From Oxyruncus cristatus (taxonomy: Eukaryota; Chordata; Aves; Passeriformes; Cotingidae), in assembly GCA_013399855.1 (NCBI GenBank), contig VXAY01006780.1, forward strand, positions 2,125,833 through 2,189,832: 64,000 nt of DNA. The letters are read 5' to 3'. The translations under genes and the position numbers were made by a program. Of the stretch, positions 41,462 through 56,330 are shown one piece after another; position 1 is the stretch's first letter, and each line of letters starts with the position of its first letter. Below the pieces are notes generated by a model, which was not told where the DNA came from, ran no database searches, and saw only the letters and a list, made by a program, of their open reading frames with translations.

Positions 41462-41659
41462 TTAACTGATTTTCTTCTGGCTTTTGCTATTCTTGGAGTC
41501 CCAGAGTATCACAACGTTAAAATACACCAGAAATAATAAGAAGTGTAAGCAGGAAACAATGGACACGGATACGGGGAACAAATCCGGGAGGCTCTGGGGA
41601 GGAGGCACTGCAGCACTCAGGAGAGACAGGACACCCATCAGGGACAGGGAAAGGAGGAA
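41462..41659 (-). CDS. ALG6: ALG6 coding exon 14 (stop codon)
   Basis: Residues 443-507, TAA at 41464-41462. Acceptor ttgtcttccag|TTCCTC. Two hydrophobic helices, then [17 protein letters not shown]. Confidence 0.96.
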   Translation of the reverse strand, partial: FLLSLSLMGVLSLLSAAVPPPQSLPDLFPVSVSIVSCLHFLLFLVYFNVVILWDSKNSKSQKKIS

Positions 41660-44600
41660 CTGGAAGACAAGGGATGATGGATTAGGTGTTGGGGATGTGA
41701 CACCTCAAACAGGTGAGCTGTTACTGCATTGTTTGGGTGCTCTGTTGTAGCCCCCCCTCCACTGACACTTCTCTGCTGGAAGAAGCTGCAGCTCAGAGTG
41801 ACAGCAATTAAATCGCTTACCAGAGTCCTGACAATCCTGGGAAAGGACTTAAACCAAGACACATATCCCTTCAGGGAAAGGGAGAACGCTTTGAGCTGCA
41901 GGTCCTCTGCTGAGGTCTTGTCCAGGATGGAGAAGGAGGCCAGGCAGGTGACCAGGAATGCTGGCGTGGTCACAGCATAGGGCAGGAGCAGCCCGTCCTT
42001 CAGCAGGAGAGGCAGCATGCTGGGAGCAGGATCATCCCAGCGTGAGGGCACGGATCCAGGGGTGTTCCAAAGAATGCAAAGAAAGAGGAAAACCAGTAGA
42101 TACATTTATCCTGACAGGAACTGGGGAAGAACATGGTGTTCAAAGAATCACGGAATGGTTTGGGTTAGGAGGGATCTTAAAACTCATCTCATTCCACCCC
42201 CCTGCCACGGGCAGGGACACCTTCCACTATCCCAAGCTGCTTCAACCTGGCCTTGGCATTTCTCTGGGCAATCTGTGCCAGGGCCTCACCACCCTCACAG
42301 GGAAGAATTTCTCCCCAGTATCCCATCTAACCCAGGTGGGAAACCATTCCCCCTGTCCTGTCCCTCCATCCCTTGTCCAAACTCCCTCTCCAACCATGTT
42401 AATAGTTTACAACTCACCTGAAAGTTGATACGAGTAAAAACCACGTGGCCATAAAGGGGATTTCATTTATGATTAGGCAAACTGGGCTAGAGTGAAAAGA
42501 GGAAAAACAGGGATCAGATCTTCCCTTATCAAACACCCCTTCCAGGTCCACATGGAACAGCAGCACTGGTGACTGTCCCCTCAGCCAGAGTGACACAGGA
42601 CAGCCCAGCCTGGCTGTACTTCACACCTTCATTTCCAGGTTATTCAGAAAAGCAAATGTGCAGAGTGTTTAAAATTCAATATATATGTAAGTTAAAGAGC
42701 AGCATGCAATAAGAGCACGAGGAAAAGATCAAAATATACCCACAGGAATATAATTTACTTACAGTGCCACCAGAAGAATGGATTTTTCATGGACTTGAAA
42801 GGAGAACAGGAAAAACGACAGGGCACAACTAACCTTAGGAAAGGAGATCAGAGCTGGATTAGTGTGTGTGACTGCAATGCAAAGCTCTGCTTTAGTGTCT
42901 CTGGCACAGACTCCACATGGAGGCAGGAGTTCAATGATCTGAGTTTTCTAATTAACTGCTACATTTCCTCCAGTGCCATTTACAGGCACCCAGAGCAGCT
43001 CCTGGAACCACCCACACGTGCTGAAAACACTGGGTTTGCAAGTTGACCAGGATTAGTTAGAAACCGCTTCGTGCAGAGCCCTCACTCTTGCTCGGCTTCA
43101 CCCTGAGCACCCCCACCAAGGAAACACAATATTCACCCACACAGGCACTGGGAAACCTCAGTCATAGTAAGAACTGGCCACCTTCTAGACATAAAATTTT
43201 GCTCATCATCATGAGCAGTTAATACACCAAAGTCAATAAACTGGTTTGGGTTTGTTTGGCCTCCCACCAAATAAAAAACACACTGTAAAACATCAACTAA
43301 ATCTTAGAAAGACTGGGACTTCCAGGCAATGTTGTGATATGCTCTCAAACACTGCTCACATAAATTAAAAAATTACCTTTTAACTCCTGAAACTTTAGAA
43401 CCAGCTCCATATAATTTTTGATTTTTGCAAAACTCATGGCAACGTGCTTCAATTCAATGGTATGACTAAGGAAAGGCAAACATTTGGAAAAATAGTATCC
43501 TTTTATTTTCAAACCACTAATGAGCTCACAACGTCCATTTGGGGACTTTTTAATTGAATTTGCAGCCAACGCAATAAGAAAAACAAACACTTTGGTAGCT
43601 AAACAAAAAGAGGAGAAATCCCAACTCCATACGAGGCTTTAATGAGTATGGAATCTTCTAAAGACTCTTCAGACGAAGATGATTAAATACAGCATTAAAT
43701 AAAGAAAACTGAGGCTAAATTTAAAAGTCTGGGTGTAAAAGACAGGTCAGACCCCCTGGACATGTGAAAGTAAAGCCCTTTTGAACCAATTCCCTCAGCA
43801 TTTCATGGCACACACCCCTCTGTGCTCTGCAGCAACTGCTGTTGGAGCTGCTGGTCACACCCCAGTGCTGAGGGGTGGATGAAAACAAGCAGCAATTACA
43901 AACAAACACTTACCAAAGCAAATTTAAACCCTTTAAGGGAAGGCTGGACAGTGAGTTTGATACAGGCAGGAAGCAGGCTCAGGAATGTCACAGCAAAACT
44001 GGAGAGTTTTGTAAGAAAAACAGTTTAAATACATGAGCAACTACATCCATTAATACTTCACTTTGTAGGCCTAGACCTGAATTCTTCACTTAGCTGAGAA
44101 ACAGACCTGTGAGCTCTGACTTCTAAGAGCACTGAAAGGGGTAATTCTTTGCATTTGCAAATTTTAACTGTTTTAACCAGGCAGCTGAAATCACTGTATG
44201 GACAAGCAGGGAATTTTTCAGTTCCTAACAGCACTTGGGGAAACCCTCATCACTTGTGAGAAAAAACTACCTAAAGCACTTACGTCTTACCTGAGTTTGA
44301 GCTGAGTCTGAGGTGATACTACATTCTTTATCTTTATAAGGACACTTAAACTGCACCAAATATTGGCTACTTTATCCTGGAAGAAAATAAAAAGGTAATT
44401 AGTGATAATTATATTCATTTAAATTTATGTTTGTGTGACAACAGCGGGGCTTGGGAGGTGGGGGTTGTTGGGTTTCTACTTATGAGAGTGCAAAAACCAC
44501 TTGCAGATGTACATCATATTCTTGGATGGACTTGAGCTTATTCTGAATGGAAGTTAAGAGACTCAATTAAAACATGCTCTGAAATAACTGAGAAATTGTT

Positions 44601-47600
44601 CTTCAGCACAAGGGACAAACACTTAACTCACGAGACCACATATTCAGTGAGAATATGGCTCTGGCGCCGTGTCCCTGAGCAAACAAACACCGGCACATGG
44701 GAGTCCTTTTCCAGGAGGCCGCCATGCTGCCCCATCTCATTCATGCCTGGCTGTAGCTGTGCTCCGTGCCTGCCAGCACTGACAGAGTTAACCCCCAATA
44801 AATCAAGGAGTCTAAAGACATTAGCAGTTGTGCTAGGATCACTTTCCAAATTAAATCTGTAAGCACAGCTCGTGAAACTCATCCCCAAGCAGCTGCTGGA
44901 GGCACAGCTGTGTGGACAGAACACCACGGAGGCACCAGCACCAACAAGTGAGAGCCACCTCCCTCACGGGCTCGCAAGCAACACGGGATATGCCCAGGAT
45001 TCCGAGGGGACACGGGGTTTGGCAGCACCAGCAAACACCACTTCACAGCCAGCACCGTTCTCCTGCCTCAGCAAGTGTTACTGGGCTGCAAAGGGAGCCG
45101 AGTCAAAGAACCTGTCACACACGCCCGGGCTGAGTTACTGGGCAGTGCTTACGTGGACAATTTCTCATTTTATCTGCATTAGCATCCAGCAAGTCACTGC
45201 CCTGAGCAGCCCAGGAAATATTTGGACTAATATTAGACTAAAATCCTTCAGCTCTTTCGGACCCATTGGTTATTGTAATTTACAGACTTTATTTTTAAAC
45301 TTGGTACTGAATAAAAAGTGTGGTGACCAAAACTATTGCTTCATAAATTCCAAATAATCCCCAAGGAAAAGGGTCATTTTTTTTGGGGGGGGAGGGGGTA
45401 TCTGTGTGAGGAGGGGTCTTTTTTAGAGAGGTTGTTTGGTGTTTGTTTGTTTGTTGGGGGTTTTAAATAAACTAGCAGAGAATACACCAAGAACACTTCT
45501 GTACCACTGCCTTTGGTACATCAGCATTAACTTCTGAAGAAAAACGTGCCAGCTGTGATATTATCTACATCCAAGAAAGACTGGAATAATAAGCATGAAT
45601 TAAACTACATAAGCATTTGCTTTAATCCCTGTGACAACACAATCTGAAATTCAAAGCTTCATTTTACTGGTTAAGCTTGAAGGTGAGAATCTGCTGTATA
45701 AGAGGGTAATATTGACTTGTGCCCTAATTAAGCAAAAGAGCAGCAACAACTCCCTGTGAGTTTGGAAATGGGAACCCTTTCTTTCACCTGAAAACTCCTG
45801 TGGCATTGCCACTAGGTAAATGAGGAATTGCTTTACTGGATTAAGGCTGCAGTGGTACTCGGCAGTTGGCAGCATGCAATTGTCCGTAATCTTAGGAAAA
45901 GCAGAACTGGCCTAAAACGTTTGGAAAACATTGTGGAAGCTGGCACAAGGTGGGTCAAAAAGGAAGTTCTAGGCTGTACCCACAAAACTGTTTTAAATTC
46001 TTTTTTTAAATACTTAATGCCACTGAAAAGAGCTGAGCAGAACCAAAGACAGGCTGAAGCTGTTCACTTTCAAGGTTACATCTTCTGACACTGTCAATTA
46101 CTATGGAATCTATTTCAATGGAAAAATGTATGGATTGAACTATGGGTCTGATGATAAGTGTTGTCTACTGGTATAATATCCTGGAAGATGCCAGCTGAGC
46201 TGGGGTTAAACACTGGATTAAATAACTGGCAAGGACTGCCTGCTGAAGAAGCCTCTCGAATTACCCGTCCCGTGGTGTGTCTCCCCCATGAAATCCCTAA
46301 AGGTCACACTGAAGGTTTCTCAAGGGATCTAAGAATACAGGGCAGGGGCAGTGGGGTGGGGAGAAGAAAACATGCATGCCTCAAACAAGCCTCTGTCAAT
46401 GGGAAAGAGTCTTCTGAGTACTTGCATGATTTGTTCCACGTCGGTGCCGAACGGGAGCCAGCAGGCAGCGAAGGACAGCACCACTGTCCCTGCCAGTTTG
46501 GTCAACAGCACCAACCTGGGCCCAAGAGAAGATAAAAAGCTCTCACTTCGGGAAAAGCAACCCAGCAGAAATAGTTGCCTTAGACTTCAGCAGCGAATAC
46601 TCATTTTGCAGGAGAGGAAGGCGTTACACAGGTATCTCCCACTACAGATGAGTTCAGAAATGCCCACATGCAGGTCAGGAGAATCCCAACTCTCCATGCC
46701 AGGCTGCCCAGGCGTATTCCCGAGAAAGACAAAACAGTTTAAAGCAACTTACCCCTTTCCTTTCAGTCCCTTCTTGAAGCACTTCCCCAGTAAATAGCAA
46801 AAAAAGGGCAGGGAATGGTAGAGCTCCATTTGCTTGTAGTTTAAGGCCAAGCAAAAGGCCACCGAGCCCAGGAGGTCCCAGTCATGGGACAAACAAAGGA
46901 CACCCCACAAGGCAAAGCCAAGGCTCACTGAGTTGTATATGGTTTTTTATGTCAAGGACAAGACACACATCTCAGTTCTGCAAGTCAGTAATTAATGCCC
47001 TGAGGGACAGGCATAAATAGCTTGGAAAATTAGTTTTTCCAAATTAGTTTTAGAAACACGTTGCCAGTTGTGACTGTTTTGTTCACAGAGAGAAATAATT
47101 TTACTTCTGCTTAAAATGTAATTTTTGTATTTCCAAGGCTTGATTCAGAGCTTGCACAGGCAAATATGAGGACGAACTCTGTGTGTGTTAATTACATACA
47201 TAAAGTATATTCAGTCAACCAAGCTCTTGGTGACAGTACTATACCACATGCATCAGGGCAAAAACTTTCTTCTTGTATTTACATAATTAAGGATAAAGCT
47301 TTCCCAAGCTTTTCCTCCCAGCTCCCAGAAGATATGTGCAGAATATTCAAATATATCAGCATTGAAATGATATATAATTTAGTTCAAGGACTTCTGAGGT
47401 TCTTGTGATTCTATTACACTCACAGTGCACCCTCATCCATGACCAGTTCCCTTAAGTGCTAATCCTGCACAAACAATGAATAATAGTCACTAAAAGCAAT
47501 GTTGTTGCCTTATGACTTTGAGAAAAGGTTCACAAGACCAGTAAATTTGGAATAGACTAAGCTATGCTTACTCTTAAATTGCAACAAAATATTAGCTTTG

Positions 47601-50600
47601 TCTTTTACTTGGTATTCTTAAAAAATGAGATAAACCAGTAAGGCACAGAATCCCAGAATGGTTTGGTCTGGGAGGGACTTTAAAGCTCCTCTTGTACCAC
47701 TCCCTGCCATGGGCAAGGACACCTTCCACTAGCCCAGGTTGCTCCAAGCCCTGTCCAACCTGGCCTTGGACCCTTCCAGGGATGGGGCAGCCACAGCTTC
47801 TCTGGTTAATTTGTGCCAGGGCCTCACCCCCCTCACAGGGAAGGATTTCTCCCTAATGTCTAATCTAACCCTGCCCTCTGGCAGTGCGGAAGCCATTCCC
47901 CTTGTCCTGTCTCTCCAGGCCCTTGTAAACAGTCCCTTGCATTTCTTGTATTGTCAGAAATGTCACAATGCTTGGTTTCTCTCTGTCAGTGTAGGCATCA
48001 GTGATGACACATCCAGACTGCCCACGTTGCTTCCTGCCCACTCCCAATGCCCAGGTGTATTTCACAGCTCATTGACTTCCCATCAGCAAACTCCCACCAA
48101 AAGGCCCTGATCTTGCAGCAGTTCAGGTTAAGCAAATCTTTGACTTCCTGGGAGCAGGGCACAGGGAGTGATGTAAGAGCGGCAGGGCTGGGACAGCCCC
48201 CAGAGGCTCTGCAGGACGTCTCTGTTTCCACTGCATCCCCCCAGTGTGAGGTCAGCTGACAGCATTTGCTTGTTCATGTACAAAACCAGAACTCTGATTA
48301 AAACAGACCCCCTATGAAGGTGTCTGCACCAATGGGGACCCGTCAGCCCCCGATTCACTTCCCTGTGAAGCCAGGACAGAACAGCACATTTTACAGAACC
48401 GAACATTTCCCACAGCTACTCCTGACACTCCTCCGCCACCCAAGCAGATCTGCAGCGATTCCCTCTCCAAACACAAATCACAGGAGCATAAGCCATCATT
48501 CTCTTCCCTGTCACAGCACCACTGGTGTTATCTGCGATAAAGTGACTGACAGAAATACGAGCTGGAGGCGTGGAAAGAATTATATTCATGTTTGGATTGA
48601 TTTGTCCCAATATCAGTGATTTTTATCTCAAATATGTCTCAGACTTACAGTTTTCTTCGATATCTCTGCTTCGGGGTGGCAGAAGCCCCTCAGATGACTT
48701 TGTGTGCAAAAATAACCTTGTGCCCAGCCAAGAAAAAGGGCTAAAAACAATGTTACTCCATAAACACAAATTCATTTCAGTGCAGAACAAGGATACTGGA
48801 AGTGTCCATGGTCAATAAGAATGAGGCCTGGATAAAGCAGGATACAGAGAGCACTGGAAACCTGGAGAGAAAGATCAAAAAAGAGAGGGGAAAAATGATT
48901 ATTCCCAAATTAGACATTAGACAGAGGAACTTACACCTCTCCAGTACAAAAATATGCTCCTCCTTGGGGCACCCTATTCATAGGAATCTTATTCTCTACA
49001 AGTAATCATCTGTCAGTAACATTTTGAGGAATAAAAAAGGATAAACCTTTTCCATAAATGAGAAAATATTGAATATTGCCTGTCCTTTGCAAACAGCTCA
49101 AAGATCACCCACACCCATCTTAAACCTTCAACCACTCCAAAAACCAGGAGACTTAGTATTCCCAAACTTTTTGAATCTACTGTGAGGAGCATTCAAGACA
49201 AAGCATGTCCCAGATCCCCCCGTGCCACACCATAATCTTGCTTTTACTACTCAAGTAACACATTCAGAAAGAAATACAATTCAGGAGTTCATGGCTACTA
49301 AACTTCAGAGCATCTTGTTATTGAAAGCATTAAAATAATTGCTGTAAGATAAAATAATGGCTTTTTTAATCTTTTTAACTGAAAAGCCTTTATTATGAGC
49401 TACACTGTCATCAGTTTTACATCGGTGTTTTGGATGTTAATTAACTCAGTGTTACAGTCTACCCTGTTCTAACAGTGTTTTCTTTGTTTAATTTACACAC
49501 ACACACGGTACTTGCCTTCTTTTTAGCAGATGTTTCTTTCAAGGAAGAACAATATAAAATAACTGCAGGAATATAAACCAGCAAATCAGCAACAAACACT
49601 GCAAAATAAAGATTAACTTTACATTAGAATCCTCCCAGGAGGAGACAAGGACAACACACAGGCAAGTGAGCATTAAAATATCAGAAAGTTCTTCATCGGA
49701 ATAAACTGGGCAGTTCCACTTCAAAGGACAAAAAGAAACAGGTCCACAGAATTTGATCTTGTTAATGTGTGTAAGGCTCATTTCTGATGTCCCAAAGCTG
49801 CTGACTCCACGTGTTCAGCTGTCCTGGCTCCTGGCACAGCCTCAGTCACACAGGGAGCACACTCTAGTTCCTCACATGCCAAAACCAGGGAGGCATTTGG
49901 GAATGCCCCAAAGAAATAGGCTCTGACTGGATCCAGGCAGGTTCTTTGATGGGACAGATACTCTGGGGGCACCAACGAAGAAGCTCCAGACTGTTACAAT
50001 CCCTGTGTGAATTAGTGATGTGAGTAAATAAACTAAAACTAGTGATTTGGTTTGATAACCCGCCTACAGCGAGTATTTGTAAGAGAGGTGACAAGGAAAC
50101 AGAACCAGCGGGTTCCCCTGCCAAGCAGGTGAATTCTCCTTGAGCCTGAGAAAAACCTCAGATTATTTTTAAGAACCAGTTTCATAAAACGTGCAATGTT
50201 TCCAAGCAGGAAAGTGTACTTTGCCTCTTTTCAGCTGAGGGCCTTGGAAGAAAATGTTTCAATATCTCAGTTACTCAGTGATGAATTGTTTTGCCAGCTT
50301 AAGCCACAACTAAACAAATATACCCAAGGTGTTAGCAAAACAAATACACTGATGCTTCAAATAAAGCTGACATTGACCACTCTGAATTATTTTAATGCGT
50401 TCTTCTAACGGCTACTGTTAAAAAGTGTTTATCAGCTCTCCAGATCCATCACTGGTTTGTCAAGTGAGTTGATTTCAAAATTAATAAAGACCATTTCAAG
50501 GGTAATTAAGTTCTAGTGATTTTTATTTTTTTTCAATTCAATCAATTACCAGAGACCAGACTGAGAGGTTTGTGAAGTACAGAAAAGCTATTGATGAGCA

Positions 50601-53600
50601 ACAAATTCTGCTGTTGCAATCAGAAAGCATTTTGTGAAACTTGAGTGTTAGGGAAAGCAACACAGATTTAAAATAGAAACAGGATAAGAAGAGTTCATTG
50701 GACACATTGTTTGTTGTTTACCTGAAACAGTTAACAAATTATCTACACATTTTTTTCTGTACTTGTTTCATCATTTTCTTTGTAGTGGCACTTCAACATA
50801 ATCAAAGAGTCAGAAGAGGGACTGCAGGAAAATGAAATTCAGAACAGATGTGGTAAAATAAATTTTTACTTTTTTGTTAACAATAATAATATCAAATCTC
50901 TTTCCCTTTGAGATCAAGTATCCAGTTCATAATGAAGATCTCTGAGACCTCAACTGGCTGTTAAGTCAGTGAATGCCAGTCTACATGTAAATTAATTTTA
51001 ATATAAAAACCAAGTTCAGCTAAAAATAAAAAGACTATTTATCAGAATGGAAGGGAAAACAAGAATACTATTTTCAAAATTAAAAAATGAGTCTATGCTA
51101 CAAAAAGTAGCTTTGTTTCAGAGTTTGTAATGAATCAATTGGGTTGGAAAATTGGTAATGTATTTCATATTTATCATGATGGCAGAAGAGGAAAGAACAC
51201 AGGACTTTGGTTCATAAATGGACCTGCAAAACCACCTGAGTTAAAGAACTGAGAATAAAGCAGCAAAAGCAGAGAAGCTGCATATTAAACATGTTAAATG
51301 AGTGAGACAAATGTGCAGGACCATCCTAAGGAATACAATTTCCCTACCTGTTGTCCGCATAAATAGCTTGTGTGGCTGACTCTCGTAGCCCCGGGAGCTG
51401 TGCAGGGCAACCCAGTCAGGATTTATTAACTTGGCACTGGAAAACAAAGTACAGACACATCAAAATGCAGACAGTTCTCATTTCCCTTTACACTCCTCTC
51501 AGCAATAAAGATGACATGCACAGGAGCATATTCCAAGAGTGAAGATGAATGAGAAGAAATATTTCAAAGAGCAATAGTGATCAATGAGAGATTTTCCTCA
51601 CCCCCGGATCAGTTTACACTATAAACTATTTCACAATTAAAAAACCCTAATCTTTGGAAACAGTAAAAAGGGAGTACAATATTTATTAGAACAAGATAAC
51701 CACCTTCAGTCTGTTCCACTGACTTTTAAAAAAACAATTGTAAATACCTTTCATACTTAAGTATTAAATATAAACCATTTACAGTTCACATAGATGCCCC
51801 ACATAACTCTGCCTGTGCACTTTAACCTACATTCTTATTCCATAAGTCTCATTCCAATGGCAGTAAAGCCCTTGTGGAAAAAGTATTCCAATAACAGAAT
51901 TCTATTTACATGATATCCAGTCATCAAATGACACTGGGGCTCTCCACACACGAGAGCTTTCCCAGGCAACGCACCCAATTCCTACAGCACTTTTTCCCCG
52001 GGCATCACTGATCCAACAGTGGAAAGCTAAATATCCAACCCACATCTAAAGCTGCTAAAATTTACAGACCTGGCAAAAAGGAGAATGTCACACAGAAGTA
52101 TTTGAAATCCTGAACTCACATGGAAGCGCAGACAAAACTGTGGTAGGCTGTGAGAGGTGGATAATCAAGGCCCCAGTACAGGAGGTTGTTATCACTTGTG
52201 TTGAAGTACCTAGAAAAAAATCAAATTAAACATAAAGAAGTATCTACCTTTCCAGCTTGGTTTTGGCCCAAGGAAAAGGCTGAGTGTTCAATGTATTCAA
52301 AACCCAAAAGAGAAGGTAGCAACTTGTGTATCTGCTTAATTTTACTGCAAATAAAGAAAATCTCAAGCAACAAAGTAACAGCAAAAGTGACTCAGTCCTG
52401 GCTGCGGAGCAGGTTAAGAAAAGCTGCTGAAGTTCTCTTCTCTGGAGAGGGAAAATCCTAGTTCTCCCTCAGAACTCAGGTGGACCACATGCAAGAAAGG
52501 AAAAGGATTTTCCCATTTGTGATTCCATTGTGCCAGTATTTCCATGGAAGGCTGGCAGCAGTTCAAATTGTCACCTCTTCCAAGTGAGAAACGGAGGGGT
52601 TTGTCCAAGGCAAAGTTACGACAACAAGGCATCAGAATCTTTCTATCTCCCAGTGCAACACCGACTACTCTGCTCCAGCTGCCACAGGGCAAGCTCTTGG
52701 CTTTTCCAGTTTCTCTCTTCAAATGCAGCCAGTTTTTGACATTTATTATAGTAAATGATATTTCTTGAATTCTTTATGAGCTGCCTAAAGTGTCTTATGA
52801 ACTGATGATAAATCACATTTCTCTGAGTTGCATCTCTGCTTCTCATCCTACAATTCAAGATTGCTCATGCCAAGGCAGTGCAAATACTTCACACAGAATG
52901 TAATGGTTTGCAACTTTTAGTGAACTTTCCAGTTTGGGGAGTTAATTTTTTTAATTTTACCTTCCATAAAGTCAGAGTTTCAATAAAAAAACCAACCCCC
53001 ATATCCAGTAATATTTATCAAGAAAGCCTTCAGAATTTTAATTAGCAGTAGGATAAGAATGCTCTTAAAGCAGCCTTTAATAAATAATGTCAAGACGCCT
53101 AAGAACAACATAAATAAGAATTATTAAGTTCTAGAATATAATCCCTTGCAGAGACGTGCTATTCCCAATGCCCAAGACTGAATATGACTTTGCCGTATTA
53201 GAGACTGAATTCCCAGAGCACACCCGATCCAAAAAACGCACCCTTCCATTATAAATATAAAATTACATAAATGATAAAAACCGAGAGCAAATACACCAGG
53301 ACCAAGATGCCCACCTGGCAGCCCATCAGCCAAACCCAGCCTGCAACAGTTTCATGTGGCCCCTGGGAATGCCTGGAAATAATGGTTGCTATAACTCTTA
53401 ATTTTAAGTAGATATAGTCCGGTGTAGCAGAGTGGATCAAAGCTGCCAACTCTATTATTATGGAATATCCCTTATCCCAGGTTTGGAAATGAAAATACAG
53501 ATACAACAGGATGATCTGAGGTCACTACACAGAGCCACCTGCAGAGTTCACAGATATTTACAGAAATACAATTGAATTAATATCCTATTCTGTCATATCA

Positions 53601-56330
53601 GTCTGCTCCCCAACAGCTGAGGGAAAATCACACCAGGCAAAAACACCACCACTATGCCTGGTGCAAGATGACCTGGAATTCCAATAAATTCCAGTTTGTG
53701 TTGTATCATATATATGGACTAAATAATTTTTACTGTTCCGTGCAAGATTTAGGAAATATTAGGAGTAATGTAAAAAGAAATAAAATTTGAAATCATTTTC
53801 CTTCTGTTTTAAGTGATCTGTACAAATTAAGGTCGCTATCCTGACATCTACATTCCAGGCACTCACATCTAAAAGACTAATAGGAACACTGGTGTGAACA
53901 AAGAACTCAGAGGTGTAAAACACAACTAAAGTTTCAGTACATTCACCCTTTGTAAGCTGAGCTCCACCAGCACCACCTACCACTGCCTGATGGGTAAATT
54001 GTAAGTAATTTCTTGCCAGTGCCTCTGAGCTTCATAGTCTCCATACATAGGTGGTTTTCCTGCACCTACAAAAACAGGACAAAGTAGTCAGGAATTATTT
54101 GGTTTATACAGATTGCTTTCCCCCAGTTATGTACTGCATATTAATATATTACTGCTTTTATTCTCCATTCCCCTGTGGTATGGAGAGCAAACAGAGATTG
54201 CTATGCAGTCTAACAGGGAGGACAAAAAAGTTATGTGTTCTTTTGCCTTTCTGGATATTTCTGCAATAAGCATTTATCAAGGCACTGTGCGGTGAAGAAC
54301 TGCTTCCTCATCTGACAAAAAAAAAAATCATTTCCAAGTGCAGATGAAAAATGGGGCACTTTCCCTGATTTTGTGTGAACTACTGCACTTCCTTAGTACA
54401 TGATAACTGTCCATGCTCTCCCCTGTGTTCCAGCCATGTTGTGGTACCTTGCTACTAAAATCAACAACCAGCATTTTTTCATGGGAAAAAAAAAAAAAAA
54501 GCTTTATCAATGCAAACAGTGTCTACTCAAATAATTCTCTCACTGGAAGGTTAACTCTGAGATTGGTAGCATGTTAAGCACCTTCACAGAGTTTATTTAC
54601 TTCTATTAACCTGCTTATTGAGAACAGAGACTGGACTGATTGTATTCTCAGTGAAATATTGACAAGAGCCAGACAGAGATTTAAGAGTTTCTTTAAAATA
54701 TAGGAAAGCCATCTATATTTCTTCGCATGATCTATATTTGTGGGAGTCCCACAAGCTCAGATATGTACCATTTATTCCCAGAAAGTGGAAAGGACATTAT
54801 CTCTGCTAATTTATTCCTGGGTGGTAGAGAGAGTAGATTATCTCCACTACATGACACATTCAACCTAAACTTTCCTAAATAAGTGAGGTCACTGGGGAAC
54901 GGGAGTTTTATCAGTGTCAGTTCTGGAGTTATAAATCTAGTGGAACATAGAATCTGCTGTAGGATTATGGAAATTCAAGATTTTAATCCAAAGTTTGATT
55001 ATAAAGAGTCAAATACAGACTGATCAGTTAGTTTAAGAATGCATATTTAGCTTCCATCTATAGCAAGCACTGAGTATACAGACAAACTGGGTTAAAATTA
55101 ATAAAAAGGCAATATTTTATTTTAAAAGGGTTGCTATCAGCTTTTCCTATTCCAAAAGGAGTTACATGATCATTGTGTAGGAAATAAGACTAAAAAAAAT
55201 GTTATTTTAGTTTAGGTATTATTTTAGACTACTGTTCAAAATCTTGATTGATTTGAAATTAAATCAAGTTTTAAAAATCCTGTCAGCAGTGGAATTGTAA
55301 ATATTTGCAGTGCAAGAGAAATTCAGCGTTGTGTGGCAAAAGACAGGGTGTTTTCTGCCTAGAGATGGGTAAAAGAGCCCCAGTTACCTACAGATCTCTC
55401 GGAACGGCATTTTCAGAAAGAAAACTCAAACCAAAACAACTGGGCATGCAACTCAGGTTCAAGCAAATCCCTTCACCTGAATACTCCTCAACAGCGCCAA
55501 TCACTCGGGGCATGAGGCTCCAACTAACTCAACAGAAAACCAGAGCTGGATTAAACTGAGCTTGCGATCCTTTGAACTGAGGAAGGTTGAAAATAATGGT
55601 TCATTTTTATTTTTTCCCCTCAGTGTGCAGAGAGCAAGCTTAGAGCAAGCTTATGCTAAATGGGAATGGCATTGAGAGGTTTGGAAAGAAACTTGCTAAT
55701 TCTTTGCAAGTGTTCTGACACAGGGAGGAGAAAAACTCATCCATTAACAGGATACAGCTGTAGCTCAGGCTGTAAACAAGCTCAAGGAAGCACAGCTCCA
55801 AGGCAGAGTAATCCCTCACTCCACGTCACCTTTACACTGTCTTCATTAGCACCACTGTAGTTTTAAACCCATAATTTATATTTAGCTCTCCGATATTGAA
55901 TTTAAAGGACAATAGTAAACAAATCTACAGTTGGACTGCAATATTCTCCACATAAAAAGCACAGGGGAGAACAGCCACGAGTTCAACCTAAAACATCACT
56001 GACCACCACCACCCCTCAAAAAAAAAGTTATGGTGTTTTTTCCCCAGTGTTTTGTTCCAAGCAGCTGTGATGTTAATCATTGCACACTTCAAAAAATAAG
56101 AACAAGGAATTCTGAGGGAAATCAAGAGGCACTAAAATACCATAATACTCAGAATAACACATTGTTTCCTATTTATGACTTTCCATAAATAAAAAGTTTA
56201 CTTTAATTTACCACAAGGTCCGTAATTCAGCCTGTGAAGGTGCATTACCTGAGTAGGAGCCCAGTGACACAGCCCAGCGCACAGTAAGTGCCAGTAACAC
56301 AGTAACTGTCATTAAGCTCCACTTTTCCAT
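41462..56330 (-). CDS. ALG6: Dolichyl-P-Glc:Man9GlcNAc2-PP-dolichol alpha-1,3-glucosyltransferase, 14 exons
   Basis: Known role: ALG6 (family GT57, GT-C fold, multi-pass ER membrane enzyme) adds the first of three glucoses to Man9GlcNAc2-PP-dolichol in the ER lumen, from dolichyl-phosphate-glucose, before N-glycan transfer. Fourteen minus-strand exons join in frame to 507 codons plus stop, the length I recall for the human protein. Landmarks: MEKWSLMTV start with a first membrane helix, GDYEAQRHW at 36-44 in the first luminal loop where the conserved acidic residue sits, [35 protein letters not shown] at 160-168 (HFQYN is the ALG6/ALG8 hallmark), [36 protein letters not shown], and a KKIS C-terminus, a lysine-rich tail typical of ER residents. 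Three introns are non-canonical: intron 5 GC-AG, intron 6 U12-type ending AT, intron 8 GC-AG. The human protein reads DYGHFQ where this one reads DHGHFQ. Confidence 0.97.
41821..42019 (-). CDS. ALG6: ALG6 coding exon 13
   Basis: Residues 376-442. Acceptor cctgctcccag|CATGCT, donor ACTCTG|GTAAGC. Encodes [37 protein letters not shown]. Confidence 0.96.
42146..42385 (-). mobile_element. CR1-type LINE 3' end
   Basis: cacggaatggtttgggttag, gggacaccttccactatccc, gccagggcctcaccaccctc: reverse-orientation CR1 tail filling most of the short ALG6 intron 12, only about 30 bp from exon 12. Confidence 0.88.
42418..42486 (-). CDS. ALG6: ALG6 coding exon 12
   Basis: Residues 353-375 plus two bases. Acceptor ttcactctag|CCCAGT, donor CTTTCAG|GTGAGT. 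Encodes [20 protein letters not shown]. Confidence 0.95.
42763..42833 (-). CDS. ALG6: ALG6 coding exon 11
   Basis: Residues 330-352 plus two bases. Acceptor tttcctaag|GTTAGT, donor GGCACT|GTAAGT. Encodes [20 protein letters not shown], a membrane helix and the conserved HEKS loop. Confidence 0.95.
43914..43998 (-). CDS. ALG6: ALG6 coding exon 10
   Basis: Residues 301-329. Acceptor aactctccag|TTTTGC, donor GCTTTG|GTAAGT. Encodes [20 protein letters not shown] and KFAL. Confidence 0.94.
44291..44376 (-). CDS. ALG6: ALG6 coding exon 9
   Basis: Residues 273-300 plus two bases. Acceptor tcttccag|GATAAA, donor AACTCAG|GTAAGA. Encodes [17 protein letters not shown], then a diverged segment. Confidence 0.95.
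44377..46379 (-). other. ALG6 intron 8 (non-canonical donor)
   Basis: Begins GCATGC and ends tcctggaag-side acceptor cttccag|GATAAA read on the minus strand. About 2 kb. Plus-strand frames of 161 codons (44872-45357) and 148 codons (46351-46797) lie here or overlap exon 8 antisense and look like chance. A G-rich run (ggggggggaggggg) lies at about 45385-45398. Confidence 0.7.
46380..46515 (-). CDS. ALG6: ALG6 coding exon 8, weak GC donor
   Basis: Residues 227-272. Acceptor ttgggcccag|GTTGGT. Encodes [13 protein letters not shown] and [15 protein letters not shown]. After TTTGAG comes GCATGC, not GT; the next exon starts in phase 0 with DKVANIW, so the junction is fixed and the donor is GC. 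Confidence 0.93.
46753..46938 (-). CDS. ALG6: ALG6 coding exon 7
   Basis: Residues 165-226 plus two bases. Starts A|TAC AAC TCA GTG (completing Q, then YNSV) immediately after intron bases ACCAT. Encodes [13 protein letters not shown] and [14 protein letters not shown]; donor AAAGG|GTAAGT. Confidence 0.93.
46939..48796 (-). other. ALG6 intron 6: minor-class (U12-type) intron with GT-AT ends
   Basis: 5' end GTATCCTTG (48796-48788) fits the U12 donor consensus at eight of nine positions. Branch-like TCCTTGAC at 46958-46951 fits TCCTTRAY, its A 13 nt from the 3' end, the spacing typical of U12 introns, and there is no pyrimidine tract before the 3' end. To keep frame and HFQYNS the intron must end AT at 46940-46939. 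The intron also carries a CR1 copy. Confidence 0.85.
47645..47935 (-). mobile_element. CR1-type LINE 3' end inside the U12-type intron
   Basis: ccagaatggtttggtctggg, ggacaccttccactagccca, ggttgctccaagccctgtcc, gggcctcacccccctcacag: reverse-orientation CR1 tail, 5'-truncated. Confidence 0.9.
48797..48861 (-). CDS. ALG6: ALG6 coding exon 6, U12-type donor
   Basis: Residues 144-164 plus two bases. Acceptor tttctctccag|GTTTCC. Encodes [19 protein letters not shown]. The donor CA|GTATCCTTG matches the minor-spliceosome consensus. Confidence 0.96.
49516..49598 (-). CDS. ALG6: ALG6 coding exon 5, GC donor
   Basis: Residues 116-143. Acceptor attttgcag|TGTTTG; donor AAG|GCAAGT, the usual strong consensus of GC-AG introns. 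Encodes [15 protein letters not shown], a membrane helix, then KETSAKKK. Confidence 0.95.
51348..51436 (-). CDS. ALG6: ALG6 coding exon 4
   Basis: Residues 86-115 plus one base. Acceptor tgttttccag|TGCCAA, donor ACAACAG|GTAGGG. Encodes [20 protein letters not shown] and LFMRTT. Confidence 0.96.
52120..52209 (-). CDS. ALG6: ALG6 coding exon 3
   Basis: Residues 56-85 plus two bases. Acceptor ttttctag|GTACTT, donor TTCCAT|GTGAGT. Encodes [20 protein letters not shown] and TAYHS. Confidence 0.95.
53981..54065 (-). CDS. ALG6: ALG6 coding exon 2 (GDYEAQRHW)
   Basis: Residues 28-55 plus two bases. Acceptor gtttttgtag|GTGCAG, donor GCAGTG|GTAGGT. Contains [15 protein letters not shown], the luminal-loop motif with the conserved acidic residue. 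Confidence 0.95.
54066..56248 (-). other. ALG6 intron 1 between coding exons 1 and 2
   Basis: About 2.2 kb, AT-rich, with short A/T homopolymer runs (54308-54325, 54484-54500). No other feature recognised. Confidence 0.5.
56249..56330 (-). CDS. ALG6: ALG6 coding exon 1 (start codon)
   Basis: Residues 1-27 plus one base; donor TACTCAG|GTAATG. The exon begins earlier, at acceptor gttttttcag|GTCCCT (56360), so 30 bases of 5' UTR precede the ATG at 56330-56328 and another exon lies upstream. Confidence 0.95.

What the first reader, a model, noticed from the sequence alone, without database searches (positions are those of the whole stretch)
46939..48796. U12-type intron in ALG6 with GT-AT termini
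Donor GTATCCTTG and branch-like TCCTTGAC (branch A 13 nt from the end, no pyrimidine tract) are hallmarks of a minor-spliceosome intron. The downstream exon must start A|TAC AAC TCA to restore Q-Y-N-S of the HFQYNS hallmark and the exact 507-residue length, so the intron ends CCAT|, not AG or AC. The only in-frame AG nearby (46925-46924, 28 nt from the branch A) would replace QYNSVS with a single His and destroy the motif. The ends lie next to the most conserved motif of the enzyme, so splicing accuracy here matters for N-glycosylation.
Basis: partly seen in the sequence, partly recalled or inferred. Interest (0 to 1): 0.75.

Follow-up and report, generated by a model that had tools for sequence, protein, structure and literature searches.

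The report
Rare GT-AT minor intron in ALG6
A bird gene for sugar-coating proteins contains a rare intron that ends in unusual letters; the human gene is already reported to have such an intron, gene-prediction software often goes wrong there, and a sister gene has the same rare kind of intron almost at the same spot.

Summary
The minus strand carries an intact 14-exon ALG6 gene (507 aa). Intron 6 (48796..46939, 1858 nt) has a perfect U12 donor (GTATCCTT), a U12 branch site (gTCCTTGAC, 8/9) whose A lies 13 nt from the end, no pyrimidine tract, and ends CCAT. Of the ends tested, only that one gives HFQYNS and 507 aa. A paper (PMC10402094/PMC11543605, passages) already calls a human ALG6 intron a rare annotated GT-AT U12 intron. 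I add two things. First, wrong gene models have translated bits of this intron: 64 of 185 read HFQYPLSLG, and 22 read bases before YN that, decoded, imply an AT end in 18, AC in 3 frogs, AG or CG in a bat. Second, the paralog ALG8 in this genome also has a U12-type intron (GT-AG), only 13 nt away in the same DHxHFQYN motif. No RNA from this species was seen.

The parts
41462..56330 (-). ALG6 coding region, 14 coding exons, 507 aa (dolichyl pyrophosphate Man9GlcNAc2 alpha-1,3-glucosyltransferase)
   Evidence: tblastn with recalled human ALG6, exon assembly; closest listed proteins are bird ALG6, up to 95% identity
48797..48861 (-). Exon 6, ends GAC CAT GGA CAC TTC CA| (DHGHF + first two bases of Gln)
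46939..48796 (-). Intron 6, 1858 nt, phase 2, U12-type, GT-AT termini
48788..48796 (-). U12-type donor GTATCCTTG, 8/8 match to GTATCCTT
46951..46958 (-). U12-type branch site TCCTTGAC, branch A at 46952
46939..46942 (-). Intron end CCAT, 13 nt from the branch A
46942..46943 (-). Rival in-frame AC end, 10 nt from branch A, would give HFHIYNS (508 aa); in 0 of 185 listed proteins
46924..46925 (-). Rival in-frame AG end, 28 nt from branch A, would give HFHLGF (502 aa); the HFHLG form is in 6 of 185 listed proteins
46928..48788 (-). Forced GT-AG pseudo-intron (GTTCTG...CTCAG) that gives HFQYPLSLG, the form in 64 of 185 listed proteins
46753..46938 (-). Exon 7, starts A|TAC AAC TCA GTG (Q-Y-N-S-V)

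Best explanation
Intron 6 of this bird ALG6 gene is a U12-type (minor spliceosome) intron with GT-AT ends, most likely the ortholog of the GT-AT U12 intron reported in human ALG6. U11 and then U6atac pair with GTATCCTT, and U12 pairs with TCCTTGAC and bulges the branch A (recalled mechanism). The second step then takes the site 13 nt downstream, within the usual 11-13 nt, although it ends AT. Shown here: the signals, their spacing, reading frame, protein motif, and the pattern of database misannotation. Inferred: use of the minor spliceosome in this species, the exact junction in RNA, and that the last base drifts between lineages (AT in amniotes, AC in some frogs) while branch distance and A at -2 are kept.
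For: Donor 8/8, branch 8/9, branch A to end 13 nt; none of the other 12 introns has such a donor. Of the ends tested only this one gives HFQYNS and 507 aa; HFQYNSV is kept in the solved ALG6 structure 6snh. 8 of 8 listed proteins whose only source is 'lgn', on contigs of 1.8-2.2 kb (too short for a gene of 14.9 kb, so read as transcripts), carry HFQYN; one, P0006, is 90% identical to this bird protein. Human ALG6: GENCODE annotates a GT-AT U12 intron; the authors say minimap2 forced it to GT-AG by a six-base deletion. GT-AT is listed among human minor intron types. 18 of 22 models with extra residues before YN decode to AT: 13 QNI, 2 QNM, 1 QHI, 1 QTNI and P0132; the 6 extra bases of the two-residue forms equal the six-base deletion. 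U12, U6atac and U4atac genes are in the same assembly, with U12 GUAAGGAA and U6atac AAGGAG stretches present.
Against: No RNA from this species was seen; protein-level data cannot tell CA|A TAC from CAG|TAC. In the human figure legend the read junctions, as minimap2 mapped them, did not support the exon's 5' junction. A U11 gene was not found, with 40 of 71184 candidates scored. Three frogs decode to AC and one bat to AG or CG, so AT is not universal; the decoding assumes the same junction codon in those species. 105 of 185 listed proteins do not show the expected QYNxVS; I read these as faulty models, not as isoforms.
Confidence: 0.91

Rival explanations
1. The intron is U12-type but ends at the AC 10 nt from the branch (GT-AC), adding one residue: HFHIYNS, 508 aa.
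For: In frame; AC is a normal end of minor introns; 10 nt is close to the usual distance. Three frog models decode to an AC end, though at the usual codon.
Against: 0 of 185 listed proteins carry HFHIY or HFHMY. It breaks a motif kept in 6snh. GT-AC is called disfavoured and 11-13 nt optimal (PMC3584512, passage).
Confidence: 0.04
2. The intron is really spliced to a downstream AG: 46923 (HFHLGF, 502 aa) or, with a shifted donor, 48789/46927 (HFQYPLSLG).
For: 6 of 185 listed proteins carry the first form and 64 of 185 the second; the second is reproduced exactly from this window.
Against: These AGs lie 24 and 28 nt from the branch.
Confidence: 0.03
3. A base error or private allele: the true end is CCAG (canonical GT-AG) and this assembly has T for G.
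For: One base change would make the end canonical; one bat model decodes to AG or CG.
Against: 71 of 185 listed proteins translate the donor (HFQYP), as expected where no AG is at the right place; 18 of 22 decodable models imply AT; human is annotated GT-AT.
Confidence: 0.03

Closest known systems
Human ALG6 GT-AT U12 intron (GENCODE; discussed in the LRGASP paper, PMC11543605 / PMC10402094)
   Same: Same gene, same stated termini and type, same forced GT-AG failure of software; the six-base deletion fits the mammal models with two extra residues.
   Different: Bird copy; the two bases that end 6 nt upstream of the intron end read AA here, where the mammal models imply AG, so bird models fail differently (HFQYPLSLG).
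U12-type GT-AG intron of the paralog ALG8 in this same genome (G000:C199:14203-12718)
   Same: U12 donor GTATCCTT 8/8, branch TTTCTTGAC 8/9 with A 11 nt from the end, in the same DHxHFQYN motif.
   Different: 13 nt upstream in homologous coordinates, phase 1 instead of 2, canonical AG end.
GT-AN (G-type) minor introns listed in the CENATAC study (PMC8280824)
   Same: GT start, U12 signals, variable last base.
   Different: Human cells; ALG6 does not occur in its main text, its data sets were not seen.
Non-canonical minor introns of the pan-eukaryotic survey (PMC10639083)
   Same: Most termini are one base away from a canonical pair; about 3.8% of orthologous animal minor introns are non-canonical (section 30).
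   Different: The text names AT-AA and AT-AT as commonest; the share of GT-AT is in a figure and table not seen.

Membership tests
U12-type (minor) introns | 5' splice site RTATCCTT | tested here: met
   GTATCCTT, 8/8; other 12 introns 2-5/8
U12-type (minor) introns | Branch site TTCCTTRAC | tested here: met
   GTCCTTGAC, 8/9
U12-type (minor) introns | Short branch-to-end distance (11-13 nt optimum) and no pyrimidine tract | tested here: met
   13 nt, stretch CATAAAAAACCAT; optimum from PMC3584512 passage
U12-type (minor) introns | Minor spliceosome snRNAs present in the organism | tested here: inconclusive
   U12, U6atac, U4atac over cut-off; U11 not found with 40 of 71184 candidates scored
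U12-type (minor) introns | Spliced by the minor spliceosome in cells | not testable with these tools
   No RNA data or knock-down in reach
GT-AT minor introns | Intron ends AT at the junction used in RNA | tested here: inconclusive
   Frame and motif demand it here and a human ALG6 intron is annotated so; no RNA from this species
Ortholog of the human ALG6 GT-AT intron | Same gene and same codon position as in human | tested here: inconclusive
   Gene match met. The codon is not stated in the passages seen; mammal models with two extra residues at this codon fit the six-base deletion
Shared ancestral intron of ALG6 and ALG8 | Same codon position and phase in both paralogs | tested here: not met
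   Both U12-type, but 13 nt apart and in phases 2 and 1; common descent would need the intron to have slid

The most novel reading that the evidence does not exclude
ALG6 and ALG8 inherited one minor intron from before their duplication, and in one paralog it slid by 13 nt while staying U12-type. In ALG6 the shifted end landed where no AG or AC suited the frame, leaving the GT-AT end, tolerated because branch distance and A at -2 decide the site. That would be a minor intron older than an ancient gene duplication, and a slide, which the pan-eukaryotic survey calls at most very rare.
Probability: 0.3. Interest if true: 0.65.

Novelty: new member of a known kind. Interest (0 to 1): 0.45.

Why it matters
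The intron interrupts the HFQYNS motif of an enzyme of N-glycosylation, and its odd end makes standard tools write a wrong protein there: 105 of 185 listed proteins do not carry the expected QYNxVS. Comparisons of ALG6 built on these models will see false changes in a conserved motif. The lineage series (AT, AC, perhaps AG at one site) can test how the minor spliceosome picks its 3' end, and the neighbouring U12 intron in ALG8 bears on how old minor introns are and whether they can slide.

Tried and rejected
Intron-shift readings: CAG|TAC (TA-TA), CAGT|AC (AT-AT) and CAGTAT|AAC (CC-AC) give the same residues but lose the RTATCCTT register; set aside on the donor consensus, not on RNA. The U11 search found nothing but scored few candidates, so I draw no conclusion. 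Control on that nearness: reading the alignment by eye, three other ALG8 introns also lie within about 13 nt of an ALG6 intron (about 5, 9 and 10 nt), so nearness alone is not unusual; what is unusual is that both members of this pair are U12-type (rough chance near 0.001, taking 12 ALG8 introns, a 0.5% share of minor introns and a 27-nt stretch of the coding sequence). Three protein searches listed 120 rows each of 4828, 3824 and 4347 hits; the 185 distinct proteins are those nearest to the queries, clustered, not a random sample; two QNI models are from one monkey species; no fish is named in the lists, so age beyond tetrapods is untested. Literature: ALG6 with 'U12-type intron' and with 'minor intron': 0 papers; ALG6 with 'U12': the LRGASP paper and its preprint; GT-AT with U12; ALG8 with 'minor intron': 0; ALG8 with 'U12': 3 papers, listing only, by title unrelated; sliding with U12 and paralog: 6, listing only. 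These cover open-licence main texts; supplements and intron databases (U12DB, IAOD, MIDB) could not be opened, so the ALG8 intron and the bird ALG6 intron may be listed there. Pfam scan of seven long ORFs elsewhere in the window gave nothing.

Full report
What is there. The minus strand of the window carries ALG6. tblastn with human ALG6 (recalled) gave 14 strong matches in order, among weak chance ones. Joining 14 coding exons from 56330 to 41462 gives 1524 nt, 507 aa and one terminal stop, and a gapless 507-residue alignment with recalled human ALG6 at 73.8% identity. The nearest listed proteins are bird ALG6, best 95% (Neopipo, Tachuris), so the bird is probably a suboscine passerine. A 64-base exon probe found one match in the 1.04-Gb assembly.

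The intron. Intron 6 runs 48796 to 46939, 1858 nt. Its donor GTATCCTT matches the U12 consensus 8/8, and GTCCTTGAC matches the branch consensus 8/9 with the A 13 nt from the end. The 12 other introns have donors that match at 2-5 of 8 and end AG. A crude composition estimate of both signals so placed in any of 13 introns is about 8e-7.

Which end. I listed in-frame ends and AG/AC ends from 7 to 43 nt after the branch. Only CCAT| (13 nt) gives HFQYNS and 507 aa. HFQYNSV is identical in the solved structure 6snh (that it is the yeast enzyme is recall). Sliding the junction (TA-TA, AT-AT, CC-AC) keeps the residues but loses the donor register.

What databases show. Three protein searches listed 185 distinct proteins. 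80 of 185 have the expected QYNxVS. 64 of 185 have HFQYPLSLG, all 64 from birds by the names; splicing this window with a forced GT-AG intron (48788..46928) reproduces that string, in which Y-P is the translated U12 donor. 7 more have other HFQYP forms. 6 have HFHLG. 22 (21 with the GHF motif, plus P0132) read extra residues before YN, as if an upstream AG had been used. The other 6 lack the region or skip exons. 0 of 185 show the AC form. 8 of 8 proteins listed from source 'lgn' alone, on contigs of 1.8-2.2 kb that must be spliced, read HFQYN. That 'lgn' means assembled sequencing runs is my recall.

Decoding the misread introns. If the true junction stays at the same codon, the residue before Y gives the last two intron bases. 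Isoleucine or methionine (ATN) is seen in 18 of 22 (placentals, a marsupial, a snake), threonine (ACN) in 3 frogs, arginine (AG or CG) in one bat. This is inference from protein models, not from DNA.

Literature. The LRGASP paper and preprint (passages) call a human ALG6 intron 'a rare but annotated GT-AT U12 intron' and say that minimap2 forces GT-AG with a six-base deletion. Six bases is the extra length in the two-residue mammal models, so I infer that mammals pass over an AG six bases upstream of the real end. In this bird that place reads AA. The CENATAC paper (passages) lists GT-AT among human minor introns; ALG6 is not in its main text. The pan-eukaryotic survey (section 30 read) puts non-canonical ends at about 3.8% of orthologous animal minor introns. 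The review PMC3584512 (passages) gives 11-13 nt as the optimal branch distance and calls GT-AC disfavoured.

The paralog. ALG8 in this genome (G000:C199) has an intron of 1486 nt (contig 14203 to 12718) whose donor is GTATCCTT (8/8), whose branch TTTCTTGAC matches 8/9 with the A 11 nt from the end, and which ends TTCAG. Joining it gives LLIVDHIHFQYNGFLF. It is the only [AG]TATCCTT on the gene strand of the 13.3-kb slice. So ALG6 (DHGHFQ|YN) and ALG8 (D|HIHFQYN) both carry a U12-type intron in the same motif, 13 nt apart, in phases 2 and 1. Nearness alone is weak evidence, as three other intron pairs are also near by eye. That both are minor introns is the striking part, roughly a one-in-a-thousand coincidence by a rough count. 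I think common descent with a slide and separate origin are both open; the survey (passage) holds intron sliding to be at most very rare.

Machinery. The same assembly has U12 (150 bits), two U6atac (132 and 113 bits) and U4atac (86 bits) genes. U11 was not found, with few candidates scored.

Verdict. The thing itself is a bird copy of a known human oddity, so a new member of a known kind. The parts worth following are the drifting last base, the widespread annotation fault, and the neighbouring U12 intron in ALG8.

Noticed in passing
L018 / G000:C199:14203-12718 (minus strand of contig): The paralog ALG8 has its own U12-type GT-AG intron 13 nt upstream, in homologous coordinates, of the ALG6 GT-AT intron.
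   Followed up: partly
window 49515..48862 and 46379..44377 (minus strand): Two other ALG6 introns have GC donors (GCAAGT and GCATGC) with AG ends; some gene models seem to go wrong there too (17 of 185 read KKKAST, 3 of 185 read RGL...QDKVAN).
   Followed up: partly
window about 47650-47930 (minus strand), inside intron 6: A stretch that looks, from memory only, like the 3' part of a CR1 retrotransposon.
   Followed up: no
L005 1501-1604: A second, diverged U12 snRNA copy at the edge of the family cut-off (53.3 against 53 bits), perhaps a pseudogene.
   Followed up: no
proteins P0179, P0181, P0185 (frogs) and P0160 (bat): Gene models that decode to AC (frogs) or AG/CG (bat) at the same intron end, suggesting that the last base changes between lineages.
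   Followed up: partly
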